Shown one piece after another: positions 25,190 to 64,000 of a stretch of DNA of 64,000 nt (positions are counted from its first letter, which is position 1; every line of letters begins with the position of its first letter). The translations under genes and the position numbers were made by a program. The DNA comes from Paenibacillus sp. MMS20-IR301 (GTDB lineage: Bacteria; Bacillota; Bacilli; Paenibacillales; Paenibacillaceae), in assembly GCF_032302195.1 (NCBI RefSeq), contig NZ_CP135275.1:7089001-7153000 (forward strand), written 5' to 3'. The notes under the pieces are model-generated. The model was not told the origin of the DNA and searched no databases. It was given only the letters and a program-made list of their open reading frames with translations.

Positions 25190-25480
25190 GGCATCAATGA
25201 ATGACAACAACGTGATGACAGGGACAAGTAGGCAGAGAATGCATCTTCCAGAAAGCCGGTGGCTGATGTGAACCGGTGATGTACCTTTGACCGAATGGAC
25301 CCTCGAGCGCCGCGCTCGAACGGGCTGTAACAGCCTTCAGTAGACCGGCCGGCTCTTCCCCGTTAACGGAAGCCAAGGCTGCTTGCCATCTTGTCGGTTA
25401 GGCATTTAGCAGCGAATAAGGGTGGTACCACGGTCTCACGTCCCTTGCGGATGTGGGGCCTTTTTGCGTACTGCGTTAGC
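25190..25480 (+). ncRNA. T-box riboswitch, tryptophan type
   Basis: The leader contains the T-box AGGGTGGTACCACG (about 25420-25433), stem I with AGAAAGCCGGTGGCTGATGTG and a likely TGG specifier in CGAATGGACC (about 25292-25301). The 3' end forms a GGTCTCACGTCC/GGATGTGGGGCC terminator with a T run (about 25432-25465). Uncharged tRNA-Trp would favour the antiterminator and allow trpS expression. The specifier was assigned by position, not by folding software. Confidence 0.92.
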
Positions 25481-45148: not shown

Positions 45149-45201
45149 TAGGCATACATTAATTCCTGACATTTGGCGGAATATTAAACTTCATACTTTT
45201 A

Positions 45202-45398
45202 TCTTATCGAGAGCGGCGGAGGGATAGGCCCGATGAAGCCCGGCAACCGGTTTGTATACAGCTTACTGCTGCGCGCAAATGTCATGGTGCTAATTCCTAC
45301 AATGCCGCCAGGTTTGCGGTATTTGGCAGATGAGAAGGCATTGTCATTATACACACAGGGCCTCTTGCGATCTGCACGGATCGCAGGGGGTCTTTTTG
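45202..45398 (+). ncRNA. SAM-I (S-box) riboswitch
   Basis: The conserved cores are present: CTTATCGAGAGCGGCGGAGG, GGATAGGCCCGATGAAGCCC, GGCAACC and GGTGCTAATTCC, followed by a GATGAG closing strand. The expression platform is a terminator hairpin (GATCTGCACGGATC core with GGGCCTC/GGGGGTC arms and TTTTT, about 45357-45398). SAM binding should stop transcription of metNIQ. Confidence 0.95.
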
Positions 45399-52080: not shown

Positions 52081-52334
52081 ATGGAGCAGCAGGGTTTTGA
52101 AGAGACCAATTTTGAAATGGAAATATGCGCACTTCTGCATAACATGCGAAATTCCCGGGTTTTGCATCCGTTTTTCGTAAGTTTTCATGTTTTTATTGAA
52201 AAAATAGATAAAATACGACAATGTTCACAATAACGACGATATCTTCCTTTATAACTTTAGGGTATTATTACCATGCAGAGAATAGATTGTATATAGAGTT
52301 ATGTAATGTTATTCGCAATAAAGACTATTTGAAT

Positions 52335-52432
52335 TACCAAAGGCAAACCTGTACGAAAGTCAGGGACGCAAAGCCACGGGCCTTACATTACTGCATCTCA
52401 CGATGCTGGATTATGGCAGCCGGGCCGCTTTT
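52335..52432 (+). ncRNA. Cyclic di-GMP-I (GEMM-I) riboswitch
   Basis: The consensus elements occur in order: AAAGGCAAACC, a GAAA tetraloop (ACGAAAGT), CAGGGACGCAAAGCCACGGG, CCT, a variable stem (CTGCATCTCACGATGC), then ATGGCAGCCGGGCCGC with the tetraloop receptor. A CCGG-based hairpin and long T runs (to about 52458) follow and could form the expression platform. It lies 52 bases before the start of the large surface operon, so c-di-GMP should control that operon. Whether ligand turns it on or off was not resolved. Confidence 0.93.
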
Positions 52433-52484
52433 TCCGGTGGTTTTTTTGCGTTTTTTTGTTTGAAGAATGGAGTGGAGGGAATTT

Positions 52485-55400
52485 ATGGGCAGGAACAAAA
52501 AATTTCTGGTTAAGCTGCTGTGTCTGCTGCTGGTAAGCCAGCTGGGGACGTCCTTCATAGGGGGGACAGCAATGAAAGTTTTGGCTCAGGGGGATACATT
52601 GAAAATTCATTTTCAGCCCCTTCATGGTTCAGTTCCTGCGGGATATATAGCTGACTATGGGGACATCTATGCTGCAAGGAATGGTCATGAGTATGGCTGG
52701 AATAAGGATCACACTACGGCAACAGTAACAAGAAGTACATACCGGGATTCATATAACAACGTATCTGCAACAGAAAGTACATACAGTGACAATATTCATG
52801 ACACGTTAACGCGAATCAGCCCTGGTGGAGAGTGGGAGATTCAGGTGGATAACGGTAATTATGAAGTAGCTGTAACAGTAGGGGATGCTGTATATGACAG
52901 TAAGAATGCACTTGCTGTGGAAGGAACGGAATTTTGGAGCGATATGAACCTGAAGGCTGGAGAGCATGCGACCCGGTCAAAGATTGTAACAGTCACAGAC
53001 GGGAAACTTACAGTGAGCCAGATTGACGGTCCAGATGTAGAGACGGCACTGAATACGGTAGAGATTACACTGGTGAATATGTTTACTCCGGTAATTTCAC
53101 CTCCGAGGATCGGACTTCCCGCTGAGCAGAACAAGATTGCCGGGAACAAGGTTCTAATGTCCGGCACAATGATAAATGTACATAGTGCACCGCCGTATAC
53201 ATATGTAAATGGATTACGGGAAGAAATCTCCCGGCACATGAGTGAACAGGTTGCAGGCATCAGCGAGCAGGTACAGCAGTATGAGCATGCTGCAACTGTG
53301 GTGAACGGATCAGATGCTGCTGCTATACAGCAGAAGATTCTCTCAGAAACACAGAGTCCTGCTGTCATCAGATCCGGACACTTAAATCTGGAAGCGAGCG
53401 TTACCTTCGGAAGTCCGGATAAGCCGGTAATCCTCATCGTTGACGGGATCAATTCGAATCAGAATTTAACTATCACAGTCTATGGATCATTAATTCTGCG
53501 CGGCGGGCTTAATGCGAATGCACCCTTGACTGTTCAAATCATGAATAGCAGCAATACTGTACCGGATGGAAATCTGTGGGTACAGGGGGCTTTTCAACTG
53601 AATAATAACTTAAAGTTCCATGTGGATAATGAACTGTATGCCGGCTCACTGACTTATAACGGAGGAACCCTTCAGATTGAGGCCAAACGTGTACTGGTAC
53701 AGGGCAATATGAATATCAACACTAATGTAACCATGAACATAGAAGAAGAGATGTCGGCAGGAGAGATCGTCTCTAATAATCTATTAGCTAATCTGAATGT
53801 TAAGAAAGGCGATTTGTTTGTTCGTGATAACGTCAGTGTAAATAATAATTTGAATATTACTACGGGAGGCTTGTTTGCTGTAGGCGGCAATCTGATTACC
53901 AATCAAAGACCGCAGATTCATACAGGAAATGGTACGGAAGGGCAGACCCTGCTGAAATATGTCCTATCGGGTCTGAAAGCGGAATATTTCAGCGGCAACA
54001 ACTTTACCGGGCAAAAAGCTGTGAAGCTGGATGAGTCCGTCTTCTTGTCGGGACAACCAGTGCTTCCGGTATCCGGTATTGCCAATCAGCATTTCTCAGT
54101 CAGATGGACCGGGCAAGTACAGCCTAAGTATTCCGGTCTATATACCTTCTCTGTTAATACCGGCGGCGGGGTCCGGCTATGGGTAGATAATCAGCTGCTC
54201 GTCGATAAGTGGAATGCTCAGAACAATACCGGTCAAGGACTTGTTCAACTGCAGGCCGGAGTAAAATATGATCTGAGAATGGAATACGCAAACGATCAGG
54301 GAAATCCGCAGGCGAACCTGTTCTGGGAAAGCGACAAACAGTCCAGGGAGGCAGTGCCGTCTGTCTATTTACGTCCATTCGGAATTCCCGAGCCTATTCC
54401 AATTCCAGCCGCTACGGCCATCACCTTACAGTGGCCTGCCCAGTTCAATGCGGATGGATATGAAGTGGAGATAGATGGTGAAATTTCGCCGCTCGGGCCT
54501 GAAACCGGTTATGTGGCGGATCATCTTAGTCCCGGTACGGAGCATACCTACAGAGTCCGGGCGAATAGTGAAGATATAAAGGGAGAATGGTCACTGCTAA
54601 CTCCTTATTGGACGCTTCCCGCTGTCCCTCAGAATATCAGCATGGCCTCAACGAGTAATTCTATAACACTGAATTGGGAGCCTGTTATTGGAGCAACCAG
54701 CTATGAGGTGGAGGTGAATAACAGCATTCAGAATATTGGAAATGTTACAAGCTATCTGGAAGATCAACTAATCCCGAATATGCAAAAAATCTTCCGTATA
54801 CGGGCTGTAAACAGCAGCGGTCCGGGAGCCTGGAGCGGGATTATAGCCAAGTCTACTATTGTGGCTGCCCCGGGTAATCTGTCAGGTACTGCTGCAGATC
54901 AGTCAATTGCACTGCAGTGGGATGCTGTCTCCGGAGCCATTGCCTATGATGTAGAGGCTGATGGGACGCAGATTGAGAATATTACAGAAACCTCCTATTC
55001 GCACAACGGCCTGGAGCCGAACAGCATCCATGAATATAGAGTAAGAGCACACAACGAGAATGGAATAAGTGATTGGAGCAGTAAGATTACTGTATACACT
55101 ACGCCTGGCATTCCCCGGAATCTTAGCGCCACCGTGGAAGGAAGTGCTATCCGTGTTACCTGGGATACGGTTAAGGGAGCATCGGGATATGACATAGAAG
55201 TAGATGGAAGCATCATAGATAACGGAACGGATACAGAATATAACCATACGGAACTAAGCTTGAATTCTGAACATACTTACCGGGTCCGGGCCAAAAATCA
55301 ACAGGCGGCAGGGGAATGGACCTCCCTGATTGTATATACAACCCATGCAGGGGTTCCCAATAATGTACGAAGCACTGCAACCAGCAGCGAGATTACATTA

Positions 55401-56645
55401 ACCTGGGATCCGGTGCCAGGTGCAACAGGCTACGATATAGAGGTGGATGGTACGGTAGTTCATGGCGGTTTGGATAACAGCTATATTCACAGCGGGCTTA
55501 AGCCGTTCTCCACTCACAGTTATAGAATCAGAGCGAGAAATGCCGGAGGTACAGGAGAGTGGAGCAGAGAGGTATCTGCAAAAACAGTTTTTGGTAAACC
55601 TGAGAACCTTACAGCAGTTGCCTACAATAGCAGCATTAAGCTTTCGTGGGACAAGGTGGAAGGGGCGACGGGTTATGATCTTCTGGTCGATGGAGAAATC
55701 ATTGACAACGGTCAAATGACCAGCTATGAGCATACAGGATTAGAGCCGTATTCATGGCATGTCTACAGGGTTAGGGGCAAATATGGAGAGAGCCTTGGAG
55801 AATGGAGCAGTGCACTTACCAAATCTACGATTCTGGGCATTCCCGGGAATATTAAGGTGAAAGCACTGAGTGATCAGATTACGTTATCCTGGGATGCTGT
55901 TATAGGAGCAACAGGTTATGAGATTGAAGCTGACGGCAAAACGATAGATAACGGAGCAAAGCTCAGCTTCACGGACAGCAAACTGTCATCCAACACAAAG
56001 CATACCTACCGGATCCGGGCGAAGAACAGCCAGGTGATGGGAGAATGGAGTGACTGGACAACGACAATTACCAGTGTTACTGCTCCAGGAGTACCGCAGA
56101 ATTTCACAGGTGTGGCAACTATAAATTCTATCGAATTATCTTGGGATAGTGTGGAAGGGGCGGCTCTGTACGATCTGGAGGTTGACGGCAAAATTATCAC
56201 TGATATCACAGTCACAGAGTATAAGCATCTCGGCCTGGAGCCTAACACAATGCATAATTACCGTGTAAGGGCACGGAATTCCGGTGCGAGCAGTGATTGG
56301 ACCGACAAGCTGAAGAAGGTCACTACCCCGGCCTTAACCATCCAGCCGGAGAAGGACAGCCAATTTAATTTTGTCATTATTGTTCCGCAGAAATCGGGGC
56401 TGACAGAGCGCAAGGTTACGGTCACCTACAGTGCTGAGGATCTGGAGGTTATTGATCTCCGGGCGGAGACGCCGGAACTTGAGACAGCCGCTGGGGCAAT
56501 ATCCGGAACTCCTATCGTTATCACCAGTTATGAGCCTGGAAGAATCGTCTATACCATTCAAAGCACAGGGAAGACGGTTATGAATACGATCAAATTGTCG
56601 GCCCGCACGAATGAGCTTACTAAAGTGACTTACAAGATAGAGTAA
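52485..56645 (+). CDS. Giant secreted PA14 / fibronectin-III protein
   Basis: This 1386-residue surface protein starts at ATG 52485 after GGAGGG. A signal peptide (about 1-36) is followed by a unique region (40-290) and a repetitive beta-strand region (about 300-480: NLTITVYGSLILRGG, NMNINTNVTMNIEEE) that may be a beta-helix. A PA14 domain spans about 492-630 (LKAEYFSGNNFTGQ, GLYTFSVNTGGGVRLWVDN), a fold that often binds carbohydrate. Eight fibronectin-III-like repeats of about 82 residues follow (WDxVxGATGYDIEVDG, HTYRVRAxN). The last 95 residues resemble a cohesin-like domain shared with the next gene. There is no LPXTG anchor. It is the first gene after the c-di-GMP riboswitch, suggesting an adhesin or matrix protein. 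Confidence 0.85.
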   Translation: MGRNKKFLVKLLCLLLVSQLGTSFIGGTAMKVLAQGDTLKIHFQPLHGSVPAGYIADYGDIYAARNGHEYGWNKDHTTATVTRSTYRDSYNNVSATESTYSDNIHDTLTRISPGGEWEIQVDNGNYEVAVTVGDAVYDSKNALAVEGTEFWSDMNLKAGEHATRSKIVTVTDGKLTVSQIDGPDVETALNTVEITLVNMFTPVISPPRIGLPAEQNKIAGNKVLMSGTMINVHSAPPYTYVNGLREEISRHMSEQVAGISEQVQQYEHAATVVNGSDAAAIQQKILSETQSPAVIRSGHLNLEASVTFGSPDKPVILIVDGINSNQNLTITVYGSLILRGGLNANAPLTVQIMNSSNTVPDGNLWVQGAFQLNNNLKFHVDNELYAGSLTYNGGTLQIEAKRVLVQGNMNINTNVTMNIEEEMSAGEIVSNNLLANLNVKKGDLFVRDNVSVNNNLNITTGGLFAVGGNLITNQRPQIHTGNGTEGQTLLKYVLSGLKAEYFSGNNFTGQKAVKLDESVFLSGQPVLPVSGIANQHFSVRWTGQVQPKYSGLYTFSVNTGGGVRLWVDNQLLVDKWNAQNNTGQGLVQLQAGVKYDLRMEYANDQGNPQANLFWESDKQSREAVPSVYLRPFGIPEPIPIPAATAITLQWPAQFNADGYEVEIDGEISPLGPETGYVADHLSPGTEHTYRVRANSEDIKGEWSLLTPYWTLPAVPQNISMASTSNSITLNWEPVIGATSYEVEVNNSIQNIGNVTSYLEDQLIPNMQKIFRIRAVNSSGPGAWSGIIAKSTIVAAPGNLSGTAADQSIALQWDAVSGAIAYDVEADGTQIENITETSYSHNGLEPNSIHEYRVRAHNENGISDWSSKITVYTTPGIPRNLSATVEGSAIRVTWDTVKGASGYDIEVDGSIIDNGTDTEYNHTELSLNSEHTYRVRAKNQQAAGEWTSLIVYTTHAGVPNNVRSTATSSEITLTWDPVPGATGYDIEVDGTVVHGGLDNSYIHSGLKPFSTHSYRIRARNAGGTGEWSREVSAKTVFGKPENLTAVAYNSSIKLSWDKVEGATGYDLLVDGEIIDNGQMTSYEHTGLEPYSWHVYRVRGKYGESLGEWSSALTKSTILGIPGNIKVKALSDQITLSWDAVIGATGYEIEADGKTIDNGAKLSFTDSKLSSNTKHTYRIRAKNSQVMGEWSDWTTTITSVTAPGVPQNFTGVATINSIELSWDSVEGAALYDLEVDGKIITDITVTEYKHLGLEPNTMHNYRVRARNSGASSDWTDKLKKVTTPALTIQPEKDSQFNFVIIVPQKSGLTERKVTVTYSAEDLEVIDLRAETPELETAAGAISGTPIVITSYEPGRIVYTIQSTGKTVMNTIKLSARTNELTKVTYKIE

Positions 56646-56664
56646 GGCTAAAGGAGAAACATAG

Positions 56665-59600
56665 ATGAAAAAAATAATATGGCTGTTATGCCTGTGCCTA
56701 ATATGCACAACAGTTATCCTTCCATCCCCTGCTCATGCCAACAGCAAGGTGGACATTGTGTTCATTATTGACCGTTCAGGAAGTATGGGCGGTTCGATTA
56801 CAAATGTTCAGGATAATATTAATGCCTTTTGTAACCAATTGAATAACCAAGGTATAGATTTTCGTTTAGGACTTGTAACTTATGAATATGAGACTACAAC
56901 TTATGATTTCACTTCTAATGTTAATGTGTTCAAGCAATATTTGAGCAGTATCGTTATCGACGGAGGTGATGAGGTCGGTCTGGATGCGATCAAAAAAGCA
57001 ATGGACTATTACGCATTTGATGTGAATTCGACGAAGTATTTCATCTTGATTGGTGATGAAGAGATTAAGTCGCTATCTATGTACAACACTACAGATAGTG
57101 TGAAAAGCCAGCTTGTCAGCAATAACATTAAACTTACTTCTATAGGTGTAGAGTCTATAAAATGGCAGTTTGAGCAGCTTTCTAACGCCACCGGCGGGCT
57201 TTATTTAGATCTGTACAGCAATTTCAATCAAAATTTGACGACTATCTTTCAACAGATTCAGAAAATCCCTACGATGGAGATTGTTTCTCCTTACGGTGGA
57301 CAACTCATTAGTGAGGGCTCGTTCATACCCGCACTTAAGGTAGCCGACTTGGATAATGAGCTTTTGACTCTCCGTTACTATCTCGATTCCGAACCCTGGG
57401 CCCGGGAAGAGAAGTCAGTAACCAATACGGCTACCGCCCAGATAGTTTCCTTCAGTGCGGCTAACATGGGGGCGATATCAGAAGGGGCACATACGCTCCG
57501 CTTCACAGTCAGCGACAGTTCAGCAACCGTACAGGATGTTGTGTCCATCTTCGTTGATAAATCCAATCCCTTGCTTGGCAGTATAGAAGTAAGCTCAACA
57601 GACTCCCAAATACAAATTACCGGGTCGGCTTCGGATACAGGCTCAGGGCTGGAAAGTGCACCTTACCGGTATACGATCGGAAGCCAGAGCAGCGGCTGGA
57701 CAACAGCACCCGGTTATAGCGTAGGCGGCTTGTCTCCTAATACATCCTATTACACTAAGTTTGAAGCCAGGGACAAGGCGGGACATATTTCTGTAAAAGA
57801 GCAAAATATGCATACGAAAGCCCAAATCCCTGCTGTATCGGTGCAAACTACGGGTGAAACCACACTTAAGCTGGTGGTGAATGATTGGAATGCTTCAGGA
57901 GTGAAGTATGTCATTCAGTCCGGTTCTTCTTATGTAAGCTCGTCCGGGACACTGGTGGGTTCTCCTGCCTGGCTGACACTGGACGGCAAGAGTCTGGCGG
58001 TCAGCGGACTAAGCGCGAATACCGGCTACAGCTTTCAAGCCAAGGCCAGGAATAGCGAGGGTCTGGAGACCGCTTATGGGGCGGCAGTCAGCGGAACAAC
58101 CTTAGCGTCTGCACCCGCGGGTATTACGCCAGACGTGTCGCAGCAGTGGATTAAGCTAACATGGCCCGCAGTACCGAATGCTTTGGGCTACGATGTAGAA
58201 GCAGACGGCACGGTAATCAGCAATGGTACGTCTAGTACGTTTATACATAATGGCTTGTCGCCCAATACACAGCATACCTACAGGGTCCGGGTGCGGAATT
58301 CAGGCGGAACAGGGAACTGGAGTACGCTAGTAACAAAGCTGACGCTGCCCGATCCTCCGGCCATTCCGGGACAGCTCTTCACGCTGCCCAGCCAGAGGCA
58401 GGTGACCCTCGGCTGGGACCTGGTGGCAAAAGCAACGAAATATGAGGTGGAAGCCGACGGGAATATCGTGGATAACGGCAACAGCAACAGCTATGTTCAT
58501 CAAGGGCTGCAGCCCCAGACCGATCACAGCTACCGCGTGCGGGCCAGCAATCCGGGAGGCACCAGTGAGTGGAGCGCCCCGGTGAAGCAGCAGACCTGGC
58601 CGGATCCTCCGGCTACACCAACGAATATATCAGCGGTTACCGAGATTCATAAGATTGCGGTGAAATGGGACGGTATGGAGCGGGCGACCGGCTATGAAAT
58701 TGAAGTGGACGGGTTAATCCTAGAGAATGACGGGCTAAGCAGCTATACCCATGAGGGGCTTGATGCGCTAAGCGGTCATACCTACCGGATACGGGCCAAG
58801 AATATCGGCGGAAAAAGCGCCTGGAGTGCGCCGCTGGATATTACAACTCACCCGGAAATCCCGGATGTTCCAACGAATATTATGACTACTTCGGATCAGA
58901 CCGCAATTACGGCATCCTGGTATACCGTACCGCATACGGATAGCTATGATGTGGAAATCGACCACAACAAAGTGGTGAATGTTCCTGACAATTCTTTTGT
59001 ACATGATCAATTGGCAGCGGATAGCGCACACACCTACAGAATCCGGGCCAATAATATCAGCGGCTCCAGCGGATGGTCCAAGCTGGTAACGATGAGCACA
59101 ATGCCGGCAGGAACAGATGCGCTGGCGCTGACTAATATGGCGGCAATCGTCACCAACAAATCAATCACCTTGTCCTGGGATACAGTAGCGGCAGACGCCC
59201 GGTATGATATCGAAGTGGACGGCAAGCTGCTGGATAACGGTGCGAATACCATCTACAGCCACACTGGGCTGGGGGCAGAAGAATTCCATGTCTACAAGAT
59301 CCGCGTGAAGCAGGGAACGGATGCCGGGGAATGGGTAGCGGTGCTGGCACTTTCCACGCTCTCGAATCTGCCGGATGCCCCGGAGAAGCTCGATGGCTTC
59401 GCCAAAGATACATCCATAGAGCTGCAGTGGAAGAAGATCGAGGGCGCTACAGGCTACCAGCTTGAAATTGACGGCAAGGTAGAGGAGTTAGCAGGGGCAA
59501 GCAAATATATTCATAACAATCTTACGTCGGGGACGGCACATACGTACCGTATCCGGGCAATGAATGCAACAGGAGTTACGGCCTGGAGTCCGGCTTTGCA

Positions 59601-59949
59601 GAAGAGTACAACCAGCCCGGATTATACCCTTGCAGTGAAGAAGGACAAGGAATACAGCCTGACGCTGCTGGCCTCGAGTGTTCAGGACTTTAGCGAACTG
59701 GTCTTCACGGTAACTTACGATCCGAATGAGCTTGAATTAGCAGATCTGTATGATTTCACACCAGCCCATGACCTATCGAGCGGCGTCATTCCAGACTCCA
59801 ATCTGAGCGCGGTGTACAGCAGCGGGAAGATCATCTTCACGATTAACCAGAATGTGGTGCCAGGCTCTTCCTGGTCGGGTGAAATCACAACGCTGCTATT
59901 TAAATCCAAAATAAATGGAACAGCGAACGTGCATGTGACAGTAGATTAA
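56665..59949 (+). CDS. Secreted von Willebrand A / fibronectin-III protein
   Basis: This 1094-residue surface protein has a signal peptide ending at AHAN (about residue 26). A von Willebrand A domain (27-195) follows, with an intact metal site DRSGSMG (Asp36, Ser38, Ser40). An Ig-like segment (about 210-300) leads into about eight fibronectin-III-like repeats closely related to those of the previous gene. The C-terminal 100 residues are the same cohesin-like fold (VTYDPNELELADLYD against VTYSAEDLEVIDLRA). The ATG follows AAAGGAG, 20 bases after the upstream stop. VWA domains bind protein partners through a metal ion, so it may hold the RHS or PA14 protein. No wall-sorting signal is seen. Confidence 0.87.
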   Translation: MKKIIWLLCLCLICTTVILPSPAHANSKVDIVFIIDRSGSMGGSITNVQDNINAFCNQLNNQGIDFRLGLVTYEYETTTYDFTSNVNVFKQYLSSIVIDGGDEVGLDAIKKAMDYYAFDVNSTKYFILIGDEEIKSLSMYNTTDSVKSQLVSNNIKLTSIGVESIKWQFEQLSNATGGLYLDLYSNFNQNLTTIFQQIQKIPTMEIVSPYGGQLISEGSFIPALKVADLDNELLTLRYYLDSEPWAREEKSVTNTATAQIVSFSAANMGAISEGAHTLRFTVSDSSATVQDVVSIFVDKSNPLLGSIEVSSTDSQIQITGSASDTGSGLESAPYRYTIGSQSSGWTTAPGYSVGGLSPNTSYYTKFEARDKAGHISVKEQNMHTKAQIPAVSVQTTGETTLKLVVNDWNASGVKYVIQSGSSYVSSSGTLVGSPAWLTLDGKSLAVSGLSANTGYSFQAKARNSEGLETAYGAAVSGTTLASAPAGITPDVSQQWIKLTWPAVPNALGYDVEADGTVISNGTSSTFIHNGLSPNTQHTYRVRVRNSGGTGNWSTLVTKLTLPDPPAIPGQLFTLPSQRQVTLGWDLVAKATKYEVEADGNIVDNGNSNSYVHQGLQPQTDHSYRVRASNPGGTSEWSAPVKQQTWPDPPATPTNISAVTEIHKIAVKWDGMERATGYEIEVDGLILENDGLSSYTHEGLDALSGHTYRIRAKNIGGKSAWSAPLDITTHPEIPDVPTNIMTTSDQTAITASWYTVPHTDSYDVEIDHNKVVNVPDNSFVHDQLAADSAHTYRIRANNISGSSGWSKLVTMSTMPAGTDALALTNMAAIVTNKSITLSWDTVAADARYDIEVDGKLLDNGANTIYSHTGLGAEEFHVYKIRVKQGTDAGEWVAVLALSTLSNLPDAPEKLDGFAKDTSIELQWKKIEGATGYQLEIDGKVEELAGASKYIHNNLTSGTAHTYRIRAMNATGVTAWSPALQKSTTSPDYTLAVKKDKEYSLTLLASSVQDFSELVFTVTYDPNELELADLYDFTPAHDLSSGVIPDSNLSAVYSSGKIIFTINQNVVPGSSWSGEITTLLFKSKINGTANVHVTVD

Positions 59950-59979
59950 CAGATTGGCTTAAGGGAGCAATGAATTGAA

Positions 59980-60927
59980 ATGAGCAAAAAGCGGATAAAC
60001 AAATACATTGCGATCGCCGTAATGATTGCTCTGGTGGCAGAGCTGGCAATTGTTACTTTTCCCAAGCAGAAAAAGGACATGGCAGATCAAATGATTACTC
60101 AGCAGGATCAGCAGATTGCGGCAGACCTATCCAATCTGACTGGAGTTACCGCGGATCAGATTATCAAGATTAAACAAACAGGGATCACCTGGAATGAAGT
60201 ATCCGAGCGGCTGAAGGATCAGACACCTGAGAATAGCAGTACGGATAAGCAGGACCGGAGTTCGCTGCTGAATGAAGCAGGAATCGGAGAGGAGCTGCTG
60301 GAGCAGCTTCGCCGGCAGGGGTTCAAAGATGGCGAGATCATGGAAGCCAAACTGTTGACGGAACGGGTTATGCAGCAATTAAAGGAAATTCAGGATAAAG
60401 ACTCTGTAACCGGTATTGTACAGAAGCCTGCCGCGGGGATGTTCACGGGACAAACCGAGGATTCCGTTCTTCAAGAGGCTTACAGTACAATCAACGGAAG
60501 GTTTGTGGAGGGGCAGGCCGTCCGGCTGCTCCTTACCCTGCAGAAGGATTTCGGGTCTATGGAATCGGTGATGAATGAATACCTGCTCACTTTGCAGACA
60601 GGCCTGGAGCTTGAAATGTACCTGACCGATAAGAAGAAATATCTTGAGAATAAAGAAGAACATCTTGCAGGTCTGCAAGAGAATATGATCGTTACGATGG
60701 AGCTGCTGGAGAAAGCTATGCTGGAGCAATTGCAGCCAGACCATTCAGTAGCCGGGAACATCGGGGGAACGGAAAATACAAGTTCAGATACTACGCTTAC
60801 TTCAGGTGCGGATGCAGGTTCACCGCTGCCTGAGATTGTCCCGCCGAGTCCGGGCGATGTCATGCCGCAGAGTCCTGCTGAAGCTGTGAGAGAAGAAATT
60901 CAAGCGATTGATCCTAACCGCAGATAG
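59980..60927 (+). CDS. Single-pass membrane-anchored helical protein A
   Basis: This 315-residue protein has a basic N-terminus, one hydrophobic helix (about 9-26) and a long helical extracytosolic part. Residues 48-78 carry the motif LTGVTADQIIKIKQTGITWN, also seen in the next protein. GFKDGEI at 114-120 is the other half of that motif. A coiled-coil-rich stretch (about 170-245) and a Pro/Ser-rich tail follow. The ATG at 59980 lies 14 bases after AAGGGAG, with a tiny ATG-AAT-TGA frame in between. It is co-oriented and tightly packed in the riboswitch operon. No known family; a scaffold or export-accessory role is only inferred. Confidence 0.72.
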   Translation: MSKKRINKYIAIAVMIALVAELAIVTFPKQKKDMADQMITQQDQQIAADLSNLTGVTADQIIKIKQTGITWNEVSERLKDQTPENSSTDKQDRSSLLNEAGIGEELLEQLRRQGFKDGEIMEAKLLTERVMQQLKEIQDKDSVTGIVQKPAAGMFTGQTEDSVLQEAYSTINGRFVEGQAVRLLLTLQKDFGSMESVMNEYLLTLQTGLELEMYLTDKKKYLENKEEHLAGLQENMIVTMELLEKAMLEQLQPDHSVAGNIGGTENTSSDTTLTSGADAGSPLPEIVPPSPGDVMPQSPAEAVREEIQAIDPNRR

Positions 60928-60941
60928 AGGAGTCCATAAGA

Positions 60942-61829
60942 ATGAATAAACGCAGAGTAATTCAAATTACAGCATGCTCAATGATTATAGCGCTTGTGCT
61001 TCAAGCAGGTGTGTTTGCCTATTCCAAGGTGGCGGGCACCGAGAACAGCAAGACGGCCAATCCGGCGAAGAGCATGAAGACAACCGATAAACTGCAGGAG
61101 ATTGCCAAAGTAACCGCTTCTTCCGGAGATATACCTGCTCAAGTATCTACAGCTCAAGCTGTTCAGAATGCTCAGCCGCTCCAATCTGAGGTCGTTCACG
61201 TAAGCTATCAGCAATTTCTTAATGCCTTTGATGTTCAGGATGTTTACCGGGAGAAGCTGAAGCAGTTGGCCGCCAGCGGGTATTCACGTGGGGATATATG
61301 CACAGCATATGATTTTTTGTATCAGAATTTTGGCAGTGAAGCAGATTTAGAAGCTATGCTTGCCTCTAAGTCTTCAGGGAAGACCTGGGAGCAGATTTTT
61401 ACTGCCTTTACAGCGGAGCAGCCTAAGTTTGAGCCCCGTGCCTTTGATTCTGACGAGCTGGAGAATTTAATGAAGGCACAGAGTCTCACATCGGACGATA
61501 TCATGATTGGTGACCATCTATCTTTTGTGACTGGTAAACCGTTCAAAGATCTGATCGGTGAAAGAATCGAAACGGGGGATTGGGGCGCTATTTTTGCGCG
61601 GGAGAAGGTCCTATATAGTGGTAAATCATTACCACGGGTTCAGATAACACAGGAGGAACTTCATCAATATACACAGCAAGGAACGTTTAGCGAGCAGCAG
61701 GTAGTCAAGGCATTTGTACTGGCACAGAAGGTCGGCGAGGCACCTGAGGTTGTGGTAGCTAAGCTGAAGGAAGGGACTTCTGAAGCAGCCATTATGGCTG
61801 ACAGCTATTTGAAGAAATACGCTGAATAA
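60942..61829 (+). CDS. Single-pass membrane-anchored helical protein B
   Basis: This 295-residue protein has an N-terminal hydrophobic helix (about 8-27), a low-complexity linker (30-85) and three related helical repeats at about 105-154, 174-219 and 238-286. Each has [SD]-x-x-D/Q-[IV] followed about 30 residues later by G-x-x-W/S-x-x-I (KTWEQI, GDWGAI, GTSEAAI). The same motif appears in protein A, so the two are distant relatives. The ATG follows GAGGAG, 15 bases after the previous stop. It lies directly before the RHS gene. The function is unknown; helping export or folding of the RHS protein is a hypothesis. Confidence 0.72.
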   Translation: MNKRRVIQITACSMIIALVLQAGVFAYSKVAGTENSKTANPAKSMKTTDKLQEIAKVTASSGDIPAQVSTAQAVQNAQPLQSEVVHVSYQQFLNAFDVQDVYREKLKQLAASGYSRGDICTAYDFLYQNFGSEADLEAMLASKSSGKTWEQIFTAFTAEQPKFEPRAFDSDELENLMKAQSLTSDDIMIGDHLSFVTGKPFKDLIGERIETGDWGAIFAREKVLYSGKSLPRVQITQEELHQYTQQGTFSEQQVVKAFVLAQKVGEAPEVVVAKLKEGTSEAAIMADSYLKKYAE

Positions 61830-61855
61830 ATCCGGCAGCAGAAAGGGGTAGCTTT

Positions 61856-64000
61856 GTGAAACAATCGAAGGCATTATTACGGGTATTAACAGCAACTATG
61901 TTCATGATGATCTTGTTCCTGCCGGCAGTGCATGCCGAGACTTTGCAGGACCAGTTAAATAATCTCGTCGGACCGAAGCAGCAATATAACACAATGCTCT
62001 CGCCTGTATACTTGAGAACTAACGAAACAGTAGATGAAGTAAGTCCTCAGGGCGGATCATTAACGATTACACAGACGGATTACGTACTGCCGGGCAAGAA
62101 CGGGCTGGATCTGGAATTCAAGCGGATTTACAAAAATGAATCGGCCAACGTCCAGGACATGGAGGTAGAATACATTGACGGAGCCTGGGTGGACAAAGTC
62201 CGCTCGAGCGCAAAGACCTCGTCTTTTTATGAAGACCGCTATAATCTCGGGATTGGTATGCGGTTCTCTTTTCCCGGCATGGAAATCAAGGCTAACACAG
62301 ACGGCAGCAGCCACAAATTCCTGCACACGGAGAGCGGCGATGTCTACCGGCTGAAGCAATATACAATGGATGGCTCACTCGTCTATTTGCCTGAAGGCCA
62401 AACGGTGAAGGACGTTGTAGTCCGAGAGTCGGCAGCCTATCAGAATGGCCAGACCGATGGCACATCCAAATACCTAATGACCGGAAAAGACGGTAAAAAT
62501 ACATATTTCGCCGAAGATGGACGGATACTCGGGATTGTGGATCGGTATGGGAATAAGATTAATTTTGAATACAGCACGCTCAGCTACCAGCTGGACGGAG
62601 AGACGATTACCAAGAAACTGATATCTAAAGTCACAGACTCTGTTGGCCGTGTATCTACCCTGGAATATGTGGAGGATCCCGCCTTTACCGTTGGCCCTAT
62701 CAATAAGCTGGAAGCGCTAGGTGCGAATGATTACTTCAAGGCTTCTGAGAATCCCAATACAACCGATTCAGGGGATTTAAACGGAAAATTCAAAGTTATT
62801 CTGCATCTCCCTGGAGACAAAAGCATTGTGTACGATAAATCGGCGGTGCTGGTCAGCGCCTCCAAGCATGTTATCCGCACCCGGCTGCAGCGGGTATACG
62901 ATACAGATAACAAACCGAAATATTTCTACTGGTACGAGCAGCCTGATCTGGGCTTCACTTATTACAATAAGGCTAACTATTCCGCCTATAACAGGTATGA
63001 GAATCTCGTGCTTGTTGATGAAGTGAAAACGAATAAAGCAAAGCGTTTTGTCTACAACACATATACGAAGAAGCTGAATGAAGGCAGCATGCAGTACAGG
63101 AAGATTTTTGAGGTTAAGGAGCTTGTGAAGACAGGCTTTGATCCGGCCCAGGCAAATTTCCTTGATAAATTAATTACAGATACCAAGAATAAGAGTACTT
63201 ATACATACACTAACGAAGCCGATGGATACGGAACTACCGGTTACAAGGAATACGATGATGCTTATCTTAAGGATACCTACCGTTACTATACAACAATCAC
63301 AGATATTAACGGCAGCACAGTCAAATATACATATAACGGCAAGCAGGAACTGATTCTAACCGAAAAGCTGGGCAAGAATCATAAAGAGACGGTTACGAAA
63401 GAGCATGATGAGCTGAAGCTGGTCAAGAAGCAGGAGACTCTGACCTATCAAGTGACTGGCGGGCAGGCAACAGGTGAGCCGGTCCGTAAGATTGAGAATT
63501 ACCGGTACGATGAATATGGTGATATGACCAGCTATACAGGGCCGATTGCTGAGCGGGACAGCAAGGGTTACCCGGTTAATAATGAGCACACTGTGCTCTA
63601 CACCTATGATATTAACAAATTTCATATTCTGACCCAGAAGACCTGGAAGCTGGATCAGGATACAACGGCTCAAACCAATTATGAGCTGGACAGCAAGGGA
63701 AATGTGCTTAAAGAGAGTAAAGCAAATGACGATCCGGCGCATCCTTGGCTGATCACAGAATATGCCTACGATACCTCCGGCAATCTCATCCGCAAAACTG
63801 CGCATGACACTGCTCAGGACTTCACAACTTATTATGAGTATGGTATTGACGCCAATGGTACGGATACCAAAGGGGCATATCTGACTAAGCAGGTTCAGCA
63901 GTCTGAAGGTAAGAGCTATGCCAAAACCTATGCTTATGATATGCAGACAGGGAATATCCTTAGCGAGATTGATCCGAACGGCAATAAGACCTCCTATCAA
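61856..64000 (+). CDS. RHS/YD-repeat secreted protein, N-terminal part (runs off the window)
   Basis: The frame opens with GTG 61856 after AAAGGGG and stays open to the window end (715 codons). A signal peptide (about 1-27, ending AVHA) is followed by a region typical of RHS wall proteins (LTITQTDYVLPGKNGLDLEF). YD-type repeats then build up towards the right (ENYRYDEYGDMTSYTG, TEYAYDTSGNLIRKT, KTYAYDMQTGNILSEIDPNG). Such proteins form a hollow beta shell that can encase a C-terminal toxin. That end, and any immunity gene, lies beyond the window. It is the fifth gene after the c-di-GMP riboswitch. Confidence 0.9.
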   Translation, partial: MKQSKALLRVLTATMFMMILFLPAVHAETLQDQLNNLVGPKQQYNTMLSPVYLRTNETVDEVSPQGGSLTITQTDYVLPGKNGLDLEFKRIYKNESANVQDMEVEYIDGAWVDKVRSSAKTSSFYEDRYNLGIGMRFSFPGMEIKANTDGSSHKFLHTESGDVYRLKQYTMDGSLVYLPEGQTVKDVVVRESAAYQNGQTDGTSKYLMTGKDGKNTYFAEDGRILGIVDRYGNKINFEYSTLSYQLDGETITKKLISKVTDSVGRVSTLEYVEDPAFTVGPINKLEALGANDYFKASENPNTTDSGDLNGKFKVILHLPGDKSIVYDKSAVLVSASKHVIRTRLQRVYDTDNKPKYFYWYEQPDLGFTYYNKANYSAYNRYENLVLVDEVKTNKAKRFVYNTYTKKLNEGSMQYRKIFEVKELVKTGFDPAQANFLDKLITDTKNKSTYTYTNEADGYGTTGYKEYDDAYLKDTYRYYTTITDINGSTVKYTYNGKQELILTEKLGKNHKETVTKEHDELKLVKKQETLTYQVTGGQATGEPVRKIENYRYDEYGDMTSYTGPIAERDSKGYPVNNEHTVLYTYDINKFHILTQKTWKLDQDTTAQTNYELDSKGNVLKESKANDDPAHPWLITEYAYDTSGNLIRKTAHDTAQDFTTYYEYGIDANGTDTKGAYLTKQVQQSEGKSYAKTYAYDMQTGNILSEIDPNGNKTSYQ

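What the first reader, a model, noticed from the sequence alone, without database searches (positions are those of the whole stretch)
52335..64000. c-di-GMP-riboswitch operon joining PA14/FN3, VWA/FN3, two novel anchored proteins and an RHS protein
A clear GEMM-I aptamer is followed by five same-strand genes with gaps of 14-52 bases and no terminator between them. The products are two giant secreted beta-repeat proteins, two membrane-anchored helical proteins of no known family, and an RHS-shell protein. The combination suggests a second-messenger-gated cell-surface assembly, perhaps an adhesive or contact-dependent delivery device in a Gram-positive cell. I do not know of a described system with this set.
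Basis: partly seen in the sequence, partly recalled or inferred. Interest (0 to 1): 0.85.

Follow-up and report, generated by a model that had tools for sequence, protein, structure and literature searches.

The report
Second-messenger-switched bacterial surface toxin operon
A Paenibacillus-type bacterium carries a conserved block of genes for a giant swappable-tip toxin, two large surface proteins and two unknown helper proteins, all behind an RNA switch for the signal molecule c-di-GMP, which suggests that cells tie contact warfare to the decision between moving and settling.

Summary
A c-di-GMP-I (GGC subtype) aptamer at 52333-52433 precedes five same-strand genes with gaps of 19, 30, 14 and 26 nt: PA14/FN3, VWA/FN3, helA, helB, RHS. 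The RHS gene (3,242 codons) ends at G000:C1:7160584; an immunity-type ORF follows 15 nt later, then an 18-kb stretch with nine orphan RHS-tail pieces.

Conservation is the main result. Of 100 genomes of the genus, helA, helB and this RHS subfamily are in the same 9. I read 24 distinct loci (also Cohnella, Alkaliphilus, Sporosalibacterium, MAGs): helA-helB-RHS in 24 of 24; VWA/FN3 and a first FN3 gene in 23 of 23 where the contig reaches; aptamer in 19 of 20 with visible leader. RHS cores 94-97% identical end in unrelated tips (16-21%), some matching known toxin families: a polymorphic toxin system.

New are the constant five-gene set, two protein families without Pfam match, and riboswitch control; ten literature searches found no description. 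Not shown: delivery, the roles of helA/helB, and whether c-di-GMP turns the operon on (favoured here) or off.

The parts
52221..52332 (+). leader upstream of the aptamer, alike in 8 of 8 genus loci although the DNA further out differs; probable control region, no + strand sigma-70-like site in it
52333..52433 (+). c-di-GMP-I (GGC subtype) riboswitch aptamer
52419..52450 (+). terminator-like hairpin with U-tract; its 5' arm overlaps the aptamer's 3' strand, its 3' arm can also pair upstream of the aptamer
52485..56645 (+). gene 1: exported PA14/FN3 protein, 1386 aa from ATG 52485
56665..59949 (+). gene 2: exported VWA/FN3 protein, 1094 aa
59980..60927 (+). gene 3 (helA): 315 aa, N-terminal hydrophobic helix then helical protein; no Pfam family
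60942..61829 (+). gene 4 (helB): 295 aa, N-terminal hydrophobic helix then helical protein; no Pfam family
61856..64000 (+). gene 5: first 715 codons of a 3,242-codon RHS toxin gene that ends at G000:C1:7160584

Best explanation
This is the c-di-GMP-controlled operon of a cell-surface polymorphic (RHS) toxin system of Bacillota. A class-I c-di-GMP riboswitch decides whether transcription passes a terminator into five genes. The two FN3 proteins (with PA14 or cellulose-binding modules, and VWA) are exported and act as adhesive or target-binding fibres. HelA and helB sit with one N-terminal helix at the membrane and hold or assemble the complex outside. The exported RHS protein encloses a C-terminal toxin tip that is released into a neighbouring bacterium on contact; the gene just downstream protects the producer. 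Tips are exchanged with an array of orphan tail-plus-immunity cassettes. Shown here: aptamer, gene order, conservation, tip variability, tightly linked downstream ORFs, cassette array. Following from family knowledge: export, enclosure of the tip, toxicity. Inferred only: roles of helA/helB and of the fibres, contact delivery, and switch direction (ON favoured about 60:40 for Paenibacillaceae; open for the clostridial loci).
For: helA and helB in the same 9 of 100 genus genomes, adjacent, same order; the close RHS subfamily (79-82% over its first 251 residues) in exactly these 9, all other RHS matches at 80.5 bits or less. 24 distinct loci read: helA-helB-RHS 24 of 24, VWA/FN3 23 of 23, first FN3 gene 23 of 23 where the contig reaches; aptamer in 19 of 20 with leader in view. 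RHS core 94-97% against 16-21% in the last 110 residues among four close genomes; the window's tip is 82.5% identical over 143 aa to that of P. mesophilus. 5 of 12 scanned tails have a toxin-type Pfam family above cut-off, one of 8 scanned downstream ORFs is Imm7, beside a Tox-REase-3 tail. An ORF starts -17 to +15 nt behind RHS in 9 of 9 loci with at least 270 nt in view. Nine orphan RHS 3' pieces downstream. Control: 0 of 17 other RHS loci in genomes with complete riboswitch lists have a c-di-GMP-I aptamer within 15 kb upstream.
Against: L051 has the five genes but no aptamer. No experiment on killing, surface display or c-di-GMP response. Neither the window's tip nor its downstream ORF matches a known toxin or immunity family; 7 of 12 tails and 7 of 8 downstream ORFs scanned have no family above cut-off. 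The folded leader prefers the outer helix over the local terminator hairpin (-38.0 against -33.4 kcal/mol), so the simple ON picture is not what the energy model predicts. helA/helB models are of middling confidence and match no known fold. One conserved operon does not prove one complex.
Confidence: 0.66

Rival explanations
1. Same system, opposite logic: c-di-GMP turns the operon OFF. Ligand binding zips the helix that encloses the aptamer and abuts the U-tract, which acts as the terminator, so the toxin system is made by motile, low-c-di-GMP cells.
For: The outer helix fits between own arms better than between swapped arms: mean -8.4 against -6.5 kcal/mol, and -5.4 (sd 2.4) for shuffled 5' arms, 18 leaders. 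In the window the fold with the outer helix is the more stable. Three clostridial leaders have a free-standing terminator. The seven functional class-I switches of C. difficile are all OFF (PMC6366702, passage). In V. cholerae low c-di-GMP induces the T6SS (PMC6618264, abstract start in a listing).
Against: The local terminator-like hairpin takes its 5' arm from the aptamer's 3' strand, the layout of ON switches, and another aptamer of this genome (L006) has the same layout with a -22.8 kcal/mol hairpin. Bc2 of B. thuringiensis, before a collagen adhesin gene, is ON (PMC6366702). Adhesin-like genes 1 and 2 fit a settled state.
Confidence: 0.4
2. Two neighbouring units: genes 1-4 are a c-di-GMP-controlled adhesin or matrix operon, and the RHS toxin only shares its transcript; it is displayed or released on its own as other Gram-positive RHS proteins are.
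For: c-di-GMP riboswitches often lie before adherence genes (PMC6366702); genes 1 and 2 have carbohydrate-binding or adhesion modules. The genus has many other RHS genes: 43 further loci in 21 genomes that lack these partners at sequence level or lie elsewhere.
Against: The long RHS subfamily is never seen without helA/helB in 100 genus genomes, nor helA/helB without it, and the order holds into Clostridia, in 24 of 24 loci read. A loose association would be expected to break. The RHS protein has no wall- or membrane-anchor family of its own in Pfam.
Confidence: 0.22
3. The tips act mainly on eukaryotes (plant, insect, amoeba) rather than on competing bacteria, with the downstream ORFs as self-protection.
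For: RHS shells also carry anti-insect toxins (ABC complexes; PMC13018210, discussion passage). One tail has a papain-fold glutamine deamidase family, a fold also used against eukaryotes (recalled).
Against: Fast-varying tips with tightly linked ORFs and orphan cassettes are the pattern of interbacterial conflict (PMC3482391, abstract start and passages); nuclease- and nucleotidyltransferase-type tails fit bacterial targets.
Confidence: 0.1

Closest known systems
RHS polymorphic toxin systems with orphan cassettes (Zhang et al. 2012, PMC3482391; abstract start and two passages seen)
   Same: YD/RHS repeats, core motif, variable tip, linked immunity-type ORF, orphan tail cassettes
   Different: constant partners helA, helB and two FN3 proteins, and a c-di-GMP riboswitch; the held text of that paper has 0 occurrences of riboswitch, c-di-GMP, vWA, FN3 and PA14
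Bacterial teneurin-like proteins (PMC13018210; passages seen)
   Same: large exported YD-shell protein with a toxic tip and an immunity gene behind it; also in Bacillota
   Different: those are defined by FN-plug, NHL and YD-shell, and in Gram-positives carry S-layer or wall-binding domains; Pfam shows neither NHL nor such a domain here. That text has 0 occurrences of riboswitch and c-di-GMP
WapA of Bacillus subtilis (recalled, no paper read)
   Same: exported Gram-positive RHS protein with variable toxic tip and immunity gene
   Different: WapA has its own wall-binding repeats and no helA/helB-like partners (recalled)
Class-I c-di-GMP riboswitches before adhesin genes, e.g. Bc2-cap of B. thuringiensis (PMC6366702, passage)
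   Same: c-di-GMP-I aptamer before a large surface-protein gene in a Gram-positive
   Different: here the transcript goes on into a toxin gene and two unknown families

Membership tests
RHS polymorphic toxin system | RHS/YD repeats and RHS-associated core | tested here: met
   18 RHS_repeat stretches; TIGR03696 77.8 bits, cut-off 32.5
RHS polymorphic toxin system | constant core, variable C-terminal tip | tested here: met
   core 94-97%, last 110 aa 16-21% among G046, G083, G085, G086
RHS polymorphic toxin system | tip belongs to a known toxin family | tested here: inconclusive
   5 of 12 scanned tails above cut-off, not the window's own; 12 of the 18 tails were scanned
RHS polymorphic toxin system | immunity gene directly behind | tested here: met
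   ORF at -17 to +15 nt in 9 of 9 loci with at least 270 nt in view; by family only one of 8 scanned is a named immunity protein, Imm7
RHS polymorphic toxin system | orphan tail cassettes | tested here: met
   9 pieces, 87-96% identical, G000:C1:7163063-7181315
RHS polymorphic toxin system | toxicity and immunity | not testable with these tools
   needs expression tests
c-di-GMP-I riboswitch | aptamer sequence and structure | tested here: met
   60.6 bits to RF03167 (cut-off 59), 61.1 to RF01051 (cut-off 35)
c-di-GMP-I riboswitch | G at the base-specific position that favours c-di-GMP over cGAMP (position recalled, G20 of Vc2) | tested here: met
   GGCAAA in the window and in the other 18 leaders, read by eye and by the script's anchor; the rule itself is recalled
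c-di-GMP-I riboswitch | ligand-dependent expression platform | tested here: inconclusive
   two competing pairings of the terminator's 3' arm
teneurin-like protein | NHL domain, and in Gram-positives an S-layer or wall-binding domain, beside the YD-shell | tested here: inconclusive
   neither in Pfam at E 0.01 over the full RHS protein; the paper used its own profiles, which I did not have

The most novel reading that the evidence does not exclude
Genes 1-4 are a dedicated, undescribed cell-surface machine of Gram-positive bacteria (helA and helB as membrane-held scaffold, VWA and PA14/CBM FN3 proteins as target-binding fibres) that displays and delivers enclosed RHS toxins, and its production is gated by c-di-GMP, so that cells arm or disarm themselves as they switch between motile and attached life.
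Probability: 0.4. Interest if true: 0.86.

Novelty: new variant of a known kind. Interest (0 to 1): 0.73.

Why it matters
[quoted passage not shown] Here one RHS subfamily has constant genetic partners, which gives named genes to delete. The riboswitch would tie a lifestyle second messenger directly to interbacterial warfare in Gram-positives, and that can be tested with one reporter.

Tried and rejected

Cohesin domain at the ends of genes 1 and 2 (my guess by eye): for gene 2 E 0.0023, 18.6 bits below the cut-off of 24.1; for gene 1 nothing; nothing in the PDB for either. Not claimed.

Riboswitch control: of 43 other RHS loci none has a listed c-di-GMP-I match within 15 kb upstream. But the list stops at 61.6 bits, and in the same script 3 of 7 system loci (G043, G001, G094) were missed for that reason; only the 17 loci in fully listed genomes are a clean control (0 of 17). 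Rows of G089 were not copied.

Direction of the switch: not settled. Of the eight aptamer loci of this genome given to the script, five were printed (L002, L004, L006, L007, L008); L001, L003 and L005 did not match its search word and were not looked at.

Literature: ten searches. Searches returned 0 papers; the only paper with Rhs, c-di-GMP, riboswitch and immunity protein together is on Vibrio TfoX/TfoY. PMC5670726 (P. riograndensis transcriptome) gave one passage, in its reference list. Li et al. 2022 on a Gram-positive polymorphic toxin system (PMC9424270, cited in PMC13018210) is not held; I have not read it and it could overlap.

Ten helB matches outside the genus were not read; at least one (G104) lies at the coordinates of L049, so they are not counted as further loci.
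Full report
What is there. The window is G000:C1:7089001-7153000 of a 7.69-Mb single-contig genome. The aptamer, the five genes and the lack of terminator-like sites in the gaps are confirmed. The likely start of gene 1 is ATG 52485, behind GGAGGG, and of the RHS gene GTG 61856, which gives the 26-nt helB-RHS gap also found in P. agri, P. piscarius and P. tritici.

Right of the window. The RHS gene has 3,242 codons from GTG 61856 and ends at G000:C1:7160584. TIGR03696 marks the end of the shell and about 420 residues follow. A 161-aa ORF starts 15 nt behind. Beyond it lie nine pieces of the RHS 3' end, 87-96% identical, from 7163063 to 7181315, among small ORFs: orphan cassettes as in other polymorphic toxin loci.

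Conservation. First searches found 15 helB and 14 helA protein clusters, the query included; those with an organism name are Paenibacillus, one is labelled compost metagenome. In 100 genomes of the genus each is in 9, the same 9, side by side. The first 251 residues of RHS match in 37 of 100 genomes, but close relatives (79-82%) are in exactly these 9 and all other matches stay at 80.5 bits or less. In the family, helB is in 19 of 394 genomes and 6 of 19 genera: patchy. In the named genome collection helB has 19 loci, 4 of them genus loci already read, which leaves 24 distinct loci read. Gene calls (the window): helA-helB-RHS in 24 of 24; VWA/FN3 in 23 of 23 whose contig reaches it (L058 does not); a first FN3 gene, whole or cut by a contig or locus end, in 23 of 23. 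The leader of gene 1 is in view in 20; 19 have a c-di-GMP-I aptamer above its cut-off. The exception, L051, has no match even at E 1. L053, L058, L059 and G089/L044 were left out of this count because the leader is not in view. A helB tree puts the four clostridial sequences in two supported pairs; its deep branches are weak. A profile of 19 helB sequences finds 69 protein clusters, none with a precomputed Pfam domain, those with an organism name from Paenibacillus, Cohnella, Ruminiclostridium and a Firmicutes MAG (only the 7,997 best candidates were scored).

A moving unit. In the 8 genus loci with leader, about 110 nt upstream of the aptamer are alike while the DNA further out is not, and the upstream genes differ between the window, G001 and the group of G043, G046, G083, G085, G086, G094. 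This fits transfer of the block with its own control region (inference).

Toxin nature. Among G046, G083, G085 and G086 the RHS part before the last ARYYD motif is 94-97% identical, the last 110 residues 16-21%, the level of unrelated proteins (recalled). The window's tip instead resembles that of P. mesophilus, 82.5% over 143 aa. Of 12 RHS tails scanned (of 18), five have a toxin-type family above its cut-off: Tox-REase-3, NTP_transf_2, PT-HINT with Ntox47, Ntox50, Gln_amidase; one has a sub-threshold DUF4258; six, the window's among them, have none. Of 8 downstream ORFs scanned one is above cut-off, Imm7, beside the Tox-REase-3 tail; one has a sub-threshold HEAT_2 match.

Partners. Four gene-1 proteins were scanned: PA14 and FN3 in the window, Cohnella cholangitidis and a Bacillaceae MAG; CBM_3 (3 stretches) and FN3, without PA14, in Alkaliphilus. 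Four gene-2 proteins: VWA in the window, Alkaliphilus and the Bacillaceae MAG, not reported at E 0.001 in P. solanacearum. The five products of the window begin with a hydrophobic segment. None shows a sortase, S-layer or wall-binding family above cut-off in Pfam. That helA and helB are the anchors is therefore an inference by exclusion; a cleavable signal in helB is not excluded.

Switch direction. The terminator-like hairpin 52419-52443 takes its 5' arm from the aptamer's 3' strand, the ON layout, and L006 in the same genome is a clean example (-22.8 kcal/mol). But the same 3' arm can pair with an arm upstream of the aptamer. This outer helix is -7.7 to -13.4 kcal/mol in 15 of 15 Paenibacillaceae leaders, with arms that change together; the local hairpin is -6.4 to -13.7. 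In the window the fold with outer helix is -38.0 against -33.4 kcal/mol with the local hairpin forced. Three clostridial leaders have a free-standing terminator and a weak outer helix (-1.8 to -4.3); L054 shows no run of six U. Known class-I switches go both ways: OFF in C. difficile, ON for Bc2 (PMC6366702); the first terminator of Bc1 unfolds with c-di-GMP but the genes do not respond (PMC11218506, abstract). I favour ON for this locus at about 60:40.

Verdict. A real, conserved and, as far as ten searches of the held library reach, undescribed combination: a polymorphic RHS toxin operon with two protein families new to Pfam and a second-messenger riboswitch. The kind (polymorphic toxin) is known; the accessory set and the control are new.

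Noticed in passing
window 25206-25448 and 45201-45336: T-box leader (93.7 bits, cut-off 93) and SAM riboswitch (70 bits) elsewhere in the window.
   Followed up: no
L002 and L004 (G000:C1:5093854-5093934 and 5094009-5094089, - strand): Two c-di-GMP-I aptamers 155 nt apart before one 269-aa exported-looking protein: a tandem pair. Similar close pairs show in other genomes.
   Followed up: no
L006 (G000:C1:5277484-5277573, - strand): c-di-GMP-I aptamer with A where the others have G before GCAAAC (a position linked to cGAMP recognition, recalled), a -22.8 kcal/mol terminator hairpin and a 473-aa surface-type protein behind it.
   Followed up: no
L053 2059-8843: P. mesophilus carries two VWA/FN3 genes in a row in this operon.
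   Followed up: no
L060 10670-20621 and L030 13779-18155: RHS reading frame in two ORFs (L060), and short beside the contig end (L030): draft assembly or decay, not pursued.
   Followed up: no
L048 and L058 RHS C-termini: The L048 tail has a pretoxin HINT domain and the L058 tail is 53.7% identical to it over 54 aa, which suggests self-cleavage of the tip in some members.
   Followed up: partly
L011 7000-7527 (G000:C1:7182000-7182527): An ORF in the cassette array looks by eye like a second copy of the ORF behind the main RHS gene; identity not computed.
   Followed up: no
L011 14630-19945, - strand: A 1771-aa opposite-strand ORF bounds the array; its end reads like S-layer homology repeats by eye, not scanned.
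   Followed up: no
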